This document shows, one piece after another, positions 40,383 through 41,793 of a stretch of DNA of 64,000 nucleotides; positions within the stretch are counted from its first letter, which is position 1; every line of letters starts with the position of its first letter. The stretch is from positions 15,001 through 79,000 of the forward strand of contig LATX02000111.1 of the NCBI GenBank assembly GCA_001466705.2. Reading direction: 5' to 3'. This stretch comes from Moniliophthora roreri (Eukaryota; Basidiomycota; Agaricomycetes; Agaricales; Marasmiaceae). The notes below the pieces were generated by a model. That model was not told the origin of the DNA, made no database searches, and saw nothing but the letters and a program-made list of their open reading frames with translations. The position numbers and the translations under genes are program-made.

Positions 40383-41793
40383 ATGTCCGATGCATCCCCC
40401 GTTGCCTCTTCCTCTTCTCTTGCTGGCAGCCAGCCAGCCGGAAACTCAAGCCCTGTTCCTACTGTGTCGGGAGAAGGACGCTATGGCGAAAACATCACCT
40501 ACCCGAATGGCCTCAAGCCCAACCCCTACCAGCTCCTCCATCTTTTCAACAGTGGACAGTACGACGATCAGATCCGGAACGCCGCTGATCAGCACAACTG
40601 ACTGGAACCCTAAGTCAAAAGCCTGTTTTTCCTCAGGGGTCAACGAAAACTATTCGAAAGAATCGTTGAGAGCTGCAGTCTCGAGATTGCAAACCAAATA
40701 ATGTACGCCTGCAATTATCAACTGGGACTTGAAGGTCCTGTTACGGTACCGTCCACGTTTCCCTACCCCCCCCATTTGTCCATGCCTCCTCCCGCAGATT
40801 CCAGAGCAATGTCGGAATACCCTCATCCCCTCACCTTTAGCCTCCTCGACCAACTCGGACGACAAACCGATGGGAACGGATACCCCCGTCCCGACATCAA
40901 CGATACTTGGAGTCTCATCTCCAGACTCACTTCCGAACCCACCGCCGACGAAACAGGACTCTCCGCCGATACCCATTCCTCCCCCAAACCCGATAACACC
41001 CTCGTTTATCCTGACCCCACTCCCGATCCCGACGTCAAACCTAAGGTTGAGTCGTTCGACTCCCTCACCTCCTCTCAGCCTGGATCTTCGACCACCGCTG
41101 ACCCCCGAAATCTTCAGATGCCTGAAGCCACAGTTCCATCAGAAGGTGGAACTCATACCTGCGGTTGGAGGGGAGGTCGTTCTTGGGGAGTCAGAGGACG
41201 AGGACGAGGACGAAGGGCAGGAGAACCGAATCTCCGAAAACGCTATCGACCCACCGATTCTCAGCTTGAGAAGTCTGACGCCAGTACCGACCCCAATGAC
41301 GCAGCTCATCGACCGCGTCTCTGCCCTGTGTGCGGATTGGAGCGCCATTTCGCCAGACATTGCCCGCAGTACATGTGTCGCAGATGCTTCAAAACTCAGC
41401 CTGGACATACGTCTGGTCACTGCCCCGACCAACGAAGGTCTGGCTACATTGCGCGCAGAAGGCCTGATTCGAGCTCAGACTCTCTGTCGGATGGTCACTG
41501 TTATGACGATGAACGGTGGTACAATGACGAGCCCTACGAGAACCTCGGCGGAGAATGTTGAGAAGTTGGAAGAAGAGTATGATCGGGACGCACAACTGTT
41601 GTTCGTAGGAGTGGACCCACAGAAGGTGAGGATGCTCTCGGTTGAAGAACGGCAGGCCATGGGATGGCAACCCGTCTCCGAGATGCCGGCTACTCCGCGA
41701 ATGGAGGATAATGATGAAATGCCGGAAATGGAGGACCGACCCGATACGTCTTACGACTATGACGCGGAACTGTACAGAGATGGGGAGTCGTAA
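40383..41793 (+). pseudogene. ORF3 of element G: best view of the dual-frame gene
   Basis: Frame A (40383-41561, 392 codons plus stop) starts at ATG 40383, 42 nt after the pol stop. It has the N-terminal domain (PYQLLHLFN, then SLFFLRGQRKLF), two stops near 40599 and 40611 that fit CGA to TGA and CAA to TAA, a Pro-rich linker, a Gly/Arg-rich patch, and the double knuckle at 41322-41423 (CPVCGLERHFARHC, CRRCFKTQPGHTSGHC). Frame B (+1) is open from 40729 to 41793, ends in an acidic tail (YDYDAELYRDGES), and carries VSALCADWS over the first knuckle. Expression of frame B would need frameshifting or internal initiation. Function unknown. Confidence 0.82.

What the first reader, a model, noticed from the sequence alone, without database searches (positions are those of the whole stretch)
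40383..41793. Conserved dual-coded third gene (ORF3) downstream of pol
All six copies that reach the region (A, B, D, G, H, J) carry a tandem zinc knuckle in frame A with identical spacing: C-X2-C-X4-H-X4-C, then X2-Y-X, then C-X2-C-X6-H-X4-C. That is exactly 34 codons (102 bp): 11849-11950, 22113-22214, 28766-28867, 33286-33947 minus its insert, 41322-41423 and 43654-43755. The only deviation is one Cys-to-Tyr in J. In every copy the +1 frame is open over the same bases and encodes a second recurring protein (SVWDDED, LCAEW over the first knuckle, and a helical ISLNI-like stretch). The two frames keep the same +1 relation in all six. Gag already has its own knuckle, so this is an extra nucleic-acid-binding-like product in the position an env gene would take. 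I know of no described overprinted gene pair in fungal chromoviruses, but I could not search.
Basis: partly seen in the sequence, partly recalled or inferred. Interest (0 to 1): 0.92.

Follow-up and report, generated by a model that had tools for sequence, protein, structure and literature searches.

The report
Splice-switched overlapping genes in fungal retrotransposons
A family of fungal jumping genes carries a third gene whose second part is written in two reading frames at once, and removal of a tiny intron appears to decide which of two different proteins is made; genomic copies made from already spliced RNA show that the intron really is removed.

Summary
ORF3, downstream of pol in these chromoviruses, has a shared exon 1 (112-121 codons), a short GT-AG intron, then about 250-310 codons open in two frames. 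Unspliced RNA reads exon 1 + frame A (basic stretch, tandem CCHC knuckle); spliced RNA reads exon 1 + frame B (acidic, partly helical, no known relatives). In the best-sampled family 4 of 37 copies fetched by similarity, plus one found by its junction, lack exactly the 55-nt intron; a tree forces at least 4 independent events. Both frames are constrained: frame-A third positions vary 0.13 in the overlap against 0.29-0.32 in exon 1, frame-B third positions 0.13 against 0.27 in the B-only tail; the pattern recurs in two more families. In other families the intron is predicted (46-67 nt), not shown. In 3 of 4 copies of one family the acceptor TAG is itself a frame-B stop. All protein relatives found are Moniliophthora roreri. 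Protein functions are inferred; no RNA or protein data were at hand. The open-access papers searched describe spliced retrotransposons but none with a splice-switched overlapping gene pair.

The parts
40383..40745 (+). copy H: exon 1 of ORF3 (shared N part, 121 codons), frame A; two in-frame stops in this copy
   Evidence: 42 nt after the pol stop that ends at 40340
40746..40797 (+). copy H: predicted 52-nt intron GTACCG..CCGCAG (no spliced copy of this family seen; a 61-nt acceptor is also possible)
40798..41561 (+). copy H: frame A after the intron, ends at TGA 41559-41561
   Evidence: family-wide 127 matches of the frame-A protein
40798..41793 (+). copy H: frame B (331 codons), overlaps A, then B-only tail 41562-41793
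   Evidence: family-wide 122 matches of the frame-B protein
41322..41423 (+). copy H: tandem CCHC knuckle in frame A; ALCADW.. in frame B over the same bases
10070..10976 (+). ORF3 of the 10-kb copy: exon 1 from ATG 10070, intron 10406-10460 (55 nt), A to 10957, B 10461-10976; cut off before the knuckle
11560..13085 (-). ORF3 of the 12-kb copy: exon 1 from about 13085, intron 12749-12695, A open 12703-11723, B open 12354-11560, knuckle 11849-11950; frames broken between the intron and 12354
21809..22724 (-). copy D: A open 22724-22101 with knuckle 22113-22214, +1 frame open 22567-21809; divergent frame B
27710..29141 (+). 28-kb copy: exon 1 from about 27710, donor 28046, acceptor decayed (TCCCTG), knuckle 28766-28867, B open 28551-29141
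33863..34672 (-). copy G: ORF3 pieces, B open 34672-33863 (SVWDNE.., LCALCV); knuckle split by an insert, not joined
43470..44802 (-). copy J: A open 44802-43963, predicted 61-nt intron 44544-44484, B 44483-43470 (337 codons), knuckle 43755-43654

Best explanation
ORF3 is one gene with a splice switch. Exon 1 starts 20-42 nt after the pol stop and is shared. If the short intron is kept, translation runs through it in frame A and makes N-A, which ends in a basic stretch and a tandem CCHC knuckle. If it is removed, the frame moves by +1 and makes N-B: a Pro/Ser-rich linker and an acidic, partly helical C-terminal part. Shown: both frames are under purifying selection over the same bases in three families; in one family the exact intron has been removed from RNA that was then reverse-transcribed and integrated, at least four times. 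Inferred: that both proteins are made; that the other families splice likewise; that A binds nucleic acid, probably the element's own RNA; that the shared N part lets the products interact so that their ratio tunes use of the RNA (about 0.3 for this regulatory part).
For: Spliced copies: 4 of 37 main-family copies fetched by similarity (L041, L043, L044, L046) and one found by its junction (L078) lack exactly GTAC..CAG, 55 nt; 30 keep the site, 3 are unreadable. Tree of 33 rows: five changes, at least four forced by supported branches. Codon-position change (A1/A2/A3), 11 near-intact copies: exon 1 .096/.031/.324, overlap .129/.062/.125, B-only tail .273/.095/.039. A-silent, B-changing differences fall from .795 (exon 1) to .189 (overlap); B-silent, A-changing ones from .604 (tail) to .173. 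A third positions overlap/exon 1 = 0.43 [0.34-0.54]; B third positions overlap/tail = 0.47 [0.36-0.63]. Families 2 and 3 show the same shape. The drop in A third-position change falls in the 63-nt window holding the acceptor (.239 before.086 in it). Donor GTA and branch-like TTA: each base kept in 31 of 32 rows. In L082-L084 the acceptor's TAG is a frame-B stop and B has no Met for 38-143 codons. Openness tests.
Against: No RNA, ribosome or peptide data. Spliced copies are known only in the main family; one junction pattern for L069/L070 found nothing, and none was tried for H, J or family 2. The 1-mod-3 length in other families was a filter of my scan and donors were picked by GTACC, so these are not independent evidence. 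Within the overlap some windows are lax (1397-1460.237/.189/.271). The ratio dNN/dNS is also below 1 in exon 1 (.30), where B is not coding, so that ratio alone does not prove B. Between families, L048 against L082 and L086 gives A ratios of .74 [.42-1.26] and .72 [.41-1.18] and B .64 [.38-1.02] for the latter, not clearly below 1. Family 3's tail is unclear (.386/.177/.194). In H, 15 of 127 A matches but 50 of 122 B matches are free of stops, although A is richer in CGA codons that decay to TGA.
Confidence: 0.87

Rival explanations
1. Only frame A is a gene; frame B is open because frame A is poor in codons that make +1 stops, and the intron loss is irrelevant.
For: The codon-shuffle test for B given A is only moderately strong (0.005-0.021).
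Against: A third positions are 2.3 times less variable in the overlap than in exon 1. B goes on past A's stop with a clean B-only pattern. Frame-B protein is recognisable at 36-45% identity in many distant copies, often without stops.
Confidence: 0.03
2. Only frame B (joined to exon 1 by splicing) is a gene; the knuckle frame is a relic.
For: Old copies have more stops in A than B.
Against: Knuckle spacing holds across deeply diverged copies. Changes silent in B but altering A fall 3.5-fold from tail to overlap. The excess of A stops fits CGA-to-TGA decay: 29 of 40 A stops, 14 CGA codons in A against 4 in B. 30 of 35 readable main-family copies keep the intron site.
Confidence: 0.04
3. Both frames are genes, but B is reached by +1 ribosomal frameshifting or its own start codon rather than by splicing; the spliced copies are a side product.
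For: Gypsy elements often use +1 frameshifting between gag and pol (PMC3735527, passages). In L048 a Met lies 4 codons into B. Splicing of RNA does not show that the spliced RNA is translated.
Against: The first Met in B lies at +0 to +143 codons in different copies, not conserved. The precise junction fuses exon 1 to B in frame. A third-position constraint starts in the window of the acceptor. Donor and branch-like codons are nearly invariant.
Confidence: 0.06

Closest known systems
XBP1 unspliced/spliced switch (mechanism recalled; PMC2329644, passages seen, names XBP1 isoform U as a frameshifted splice variant and cites Nekrutenko and He 2006)
   Same: A short segment is removed from the RNA, so that one shared N part is continued in either of two overlapping frames.
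   Different: XBP1 is a host gene with an unconventional intron (recalled); here a GT-AG intron in a retrotransposon. No homology is claimed.
BARE1 retrotransposon facultative intron (PMC3735527, passages)
   Same: Short (104 nt) optional intron in an LTR retrotransposon; splicing changes the frame.
   Different: There the new frame stops after three residues so that only Gag is made; it opens no second gene. Copia superfamily, inside gag-pol.
Spliced env-like and additional ORFs of plant LTR retrotransposons, such as Bagy2 (PMC7264820, passages)
   Same: Extra gene between pol and the 3' LTR, with splicing involved.
   Different: Splicing there is told as giving an env message; no overlapping pair is told in the passages seen.
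Additional ORF of unknown function in some fungal chromoviruses (PMC2864245, section 5 read)
   Same: Fungal chromodomain Gypsy elements with an extra ORF.
   Different: Only a label in a figure legend; no second frame, intron or sequence relation is given, and Moniliophthora is not mentioned.
Overlapping accessory genes of complex retroviruses, tat/rev and tax/rex (recalled)
   Same: Overprinted regulatory genes reached by splicing.
   Different: No homology found; here one small intron inside the gene is the switch and both products share a long N part.

Membership tests
Chromovirus (Gypsy LTR retrotransposon with chromodomain) | RT, RNase H, integrase and chromodomain in pol | tested here: met
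   Pfam RVT_1, RT_RNaseH, Integrase_H2C2, Chromo above cut-off in one pol (13109-15772); rve and Chromo above cut-off in H's pol end
Overprinted (dual-coded) gene pair | Purifying selection in both frames over the same bases | tested here: met
   with exon 1 and tail as single-coded controls
Alternatively spliced LTR retrotransposon | Intron removed from element RNA | tested here: met
   five genomic copies without exactly the 55-nt intron, main family only
Alternatively spliced LTR retrotransposon | Both RNA forms present in cells | not testable with these tools
   no RNA data held
XBP1/HAC1-type unconventional splicing | Intron without GT-AG ends (recalled) | tested here: not met
   GT-AG ends with a CTTAC branch-like motif
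CCHC zinc knuckle protein (frame A) | C-X2-C-X4-H-X4-C spacing | tested here: met
   first knuckle in five uninterrupted window copies
CCHC zinc knuckle protein (frame A) | Match to Pfam zf-CCHC | tested here: not met
   only sub-threshold Zn_Tnp_IS91 in two of three frame-A proteins
Retroviral env gene | Transmembrane glycoprotein | not tested
   position fits; no transmembrane prediction was run

The most novel reading that the evidence does not exclude
The two products form a self-measuring switch: N-A binds unspliced element RNA through its tandem knuckle and favours intron retention and packaging, while N-B, made only after splicing, pairs with N-A through the shared N part and counteracts it. 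This would be a post-transcriptional control circuit of the complex-retrovirus kind, evolved inside one overprinted gene of a fungal retrotransposon.
Probability: 0.25. Interest if true: 0.94.

Novelty: new variant of a known kind. Interest (0 to 1): 0.86.

Why it matters
Spliced retrotransposon RNAs and overprinted viral genes are each known, but a conserved stretch of roughly 250-310 codons in two frames, switched by a tiny intron, was not found in the retrotransposon papers searched. It is a natural test bed: over a hundred matches per family in one genome, single-coded controls on both sides, and DNA fossils of the spliced RNA. It bears on how overlapping genes persist under conflicting constraint and how retrotransposons gain regulatory genes. 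It also warns annotators: several public M. roreri gene models of this gene mix the frames.

Tried and rejected
Searches for what B is gave nothing: Pfam none for the three B proteins, PDB by sequence none for B and one chance hit (E 0.71) for A. AlphaFold2 of a spliced-copy ORF: mean pLDDT 42, not searched further; of B's C-terminal part 58.7, with a helical core at residues 28-107 mostly about 70-87. Foldseek with the second model: 2 PDB and 43 viral matches, none with E <= 0.001, so no conclusion. Relatives outside M. roreri: none in three protein searches (36, 31 and 51 hits), which need shared 5-residue words, so distant kin could be missed. L052 (C92) also puts exon 1 in frame with B, but with the intron kept and a deletion behind it; rejected as a splice product. 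L080 and L081, the 3-mismatch junction hits, are unrelated. Public gene models as splicing evidence rejected: P0001 implies another acceptor, and P0005 and P0031 mix frames. dNN/dNS as proof for B alone rejected, because exon 1 gives .30 as well.

Full report
What was given. A third gene downstream of pol in several chromovirus copies of the window, open in two frames. The window lies in a 59.4 Mb assembly of 154 contigs. Every protein relative found is from Moniliophthora roreri (36 of 36, 31 of 31, 51 of 51 hits), whose published long-read assemblies measure 56.8-59.6 Mb (PMC10468315, passages), so the host is most likely that species. Pfam confirms chromoviruses.

Observation. The knuckle coordinates are right for the five uninterrupted copies. 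Genome-wide, the frame-A protein of one family (window:11723-12703) gives 124 matches and its frame-B protein 146; a second family gives 108 B matches; family H, the copy named in the finding, gives 122 B and 127 A matches. The sets overlap, contain fragments, and are lower bounds.

The intron. In five of 30 copies the N part of ORF3 lies in frame with B rather than A. In four of them (L041, L043, L044, L046) a GT-AG stretch of 55 nt is missing to the base; in the fifth, L052, the intron is present and an unrelated deletion shifts the frame. A genome search for the spliced junction found five exact places (those four and L078) and two unrelated 3-mismatch places. Of 38 main-family copies examined, 30 hold the intron site (26 of them with exactly 55 nt up to ACACAG), 5 are spliced, and 3 are unreadable; L078 was fetched because of its junction, so the unbiased share is 4 of 37. 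A tree of 33 rows needs five changes for the spliced state, at least four forced by supported branches. A public protein in N-B form (P0002) aligns end to end in six places: the five and L052. Reverse transcription of spliced but otherwise long element RNA is the simplest source, since pol's 3' part precedes ORF3 in L076 and L077.

Other families. In 14 copies of other types, and L048 for comparison, GTACC stands where the protein reads G-x-x-x-V-P, and a candidate acceptor gives an open frame B: 67 nt in family 2, 61 nt in J types, 52 (or 61) in H, 46 or 58 in L069/L070, 58 in L071, 61 in L072, 46 or 61 in L074 (longer alternatives exist for some). The scan demanded length 1 mod 3 and the donors were picked by GTACC, so this is a prediction, not proof. 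More telling: in L082, L083 and L084 (not L073, which has CAG) the last three bases of the intron are TAG in frame B, B is open from the next base for 359 codons, and its first Met lies 38-143 codons on. There B cannot be read from upstream in its own frame; splicing or a frame jump is needed. In other copies the upstream B stop lies up to 135 nt before the candidate acceptor, so this block is not universal.

Selection. I compared 11 main-family copies: 13 of 33 examined had at most one stop over both frames; an identical duplicate (L051) and L052 were dropped. Differences at A codon positions 1/2/3: exon 1 .096/.031/.324, overlap .129/.062/.125, B-only tail .273/.095/.039. Exon 1 behaves as A-coding only, the tail as B-coding only, the overlap as both. 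Bootstrap: A third positions overlap over exon 1 0.43 [0.34-0.54], B third positions overlap over tail 0.47 [0.36-0.63]. The exon 1 value is .293 there and .324, because one search left out the exon 1 of the three spliced copies as out of register (compare). Masking CpG-type sites leaves the picture. The 8 intron-bearing copies alone give .136/.066/.132 in the overlap. Family 2 (4 copies).113/.022/.222.168/.043/.122.475/.156/.081. Family 3 (3 copies; L085 left out for an internal duplication and unread bases).211/.153/.612.325/.147/.301.386/.177/.194. Pol's 3' end as a further single-coded control.038/.017/.222. Results that fit less well: dNN/dNS is below 1 also in exon 1; some linker windows of the overlap are lax; two of three cross-family pairs do not show constraint on A clearly, and one of three does not for B.

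Splice signals. In 32 aligned rows each base of the donor codon GTA and of the branch-like codon TTA is kept in 31. GTA is 2 of 20 Val codons and TTA 3 of 33 Leu codons in ORF A of L048, but TTA is 6 of 29 in pol's end, so the argument rests on invariance more than rarity.

Decay. Stops are mostly TGA where other copies have CGA in A (29 of 40), less so in B (11 of 28). With 14 CGA codons in A against 4 in B, this can explain why A looks more broken.

Function. Frame A ends in a basic stretch with the knuckle (net charge +6 over the last 130 residues in L048 and L082) and B's last 175-185 residues have net charge -16 in both. B's core and exon 1 are predicted helical, the latter at low confidence. 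No relatives by family, sequence or fold. A's nucleic-acid binding is inferred from the motif; B's role is inference throughout. ORF3's ATG lies 20 nt after the pol stop in L048 and 42 nt in H, which would suit reinitiation; untested.

Literature. Full-text searches (listings, with passages or a section of those named) showed spliced retrotransposons (BARE1, copia, Ogre, CRR and Bagy2, as told in PMC3735527) and unexplained additional ORFs in fungal chromoviruses (PMC2864245), but no splice-switched overlapping pair. Subscription papers are mostly not held and figures and supplements were not seen, so this does not prove absence.

Verdict. The finding is real and goes further than stated: an overprinted gene with a splice switch. 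Alternative splicing that chooses between overlapping frames is known for a few host genes; the setting, the length, the conservation and the genomic record of spliced RNA make this a new variant.

Noticed in passing
L052 (C92:627413-628837): Exon 1 joined in frame to B by a deletion downstream of a retained intron: a second, non-splice route to an N-B ORF of about 490 codons.
   Followed up: partly
L048 807-833; window 40338-40385: ORF3's ATG follows the pol stop by only 20-42 nt, as stop-start reinitiation would need.
   Followed up: no
loci: Most frame-A stops in old copies are CGA to TGA, a CpG-type decay.
   Followed up: yes
window 22113-22214 (copy D): A divergent copy keeps the knuckle while its +1 frame is unlike the other B proteins; B may have been remodelled or lost there.
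   Followed up: no
P0001, P0005, P0031 (public M. roreri gene models): Gene models of this gene use different introns and mix frames A and B.
   Followed up: partly
L085: This locus holds unread bases and an apparent internal duplication of the ORF3 region.
   Followed up: no
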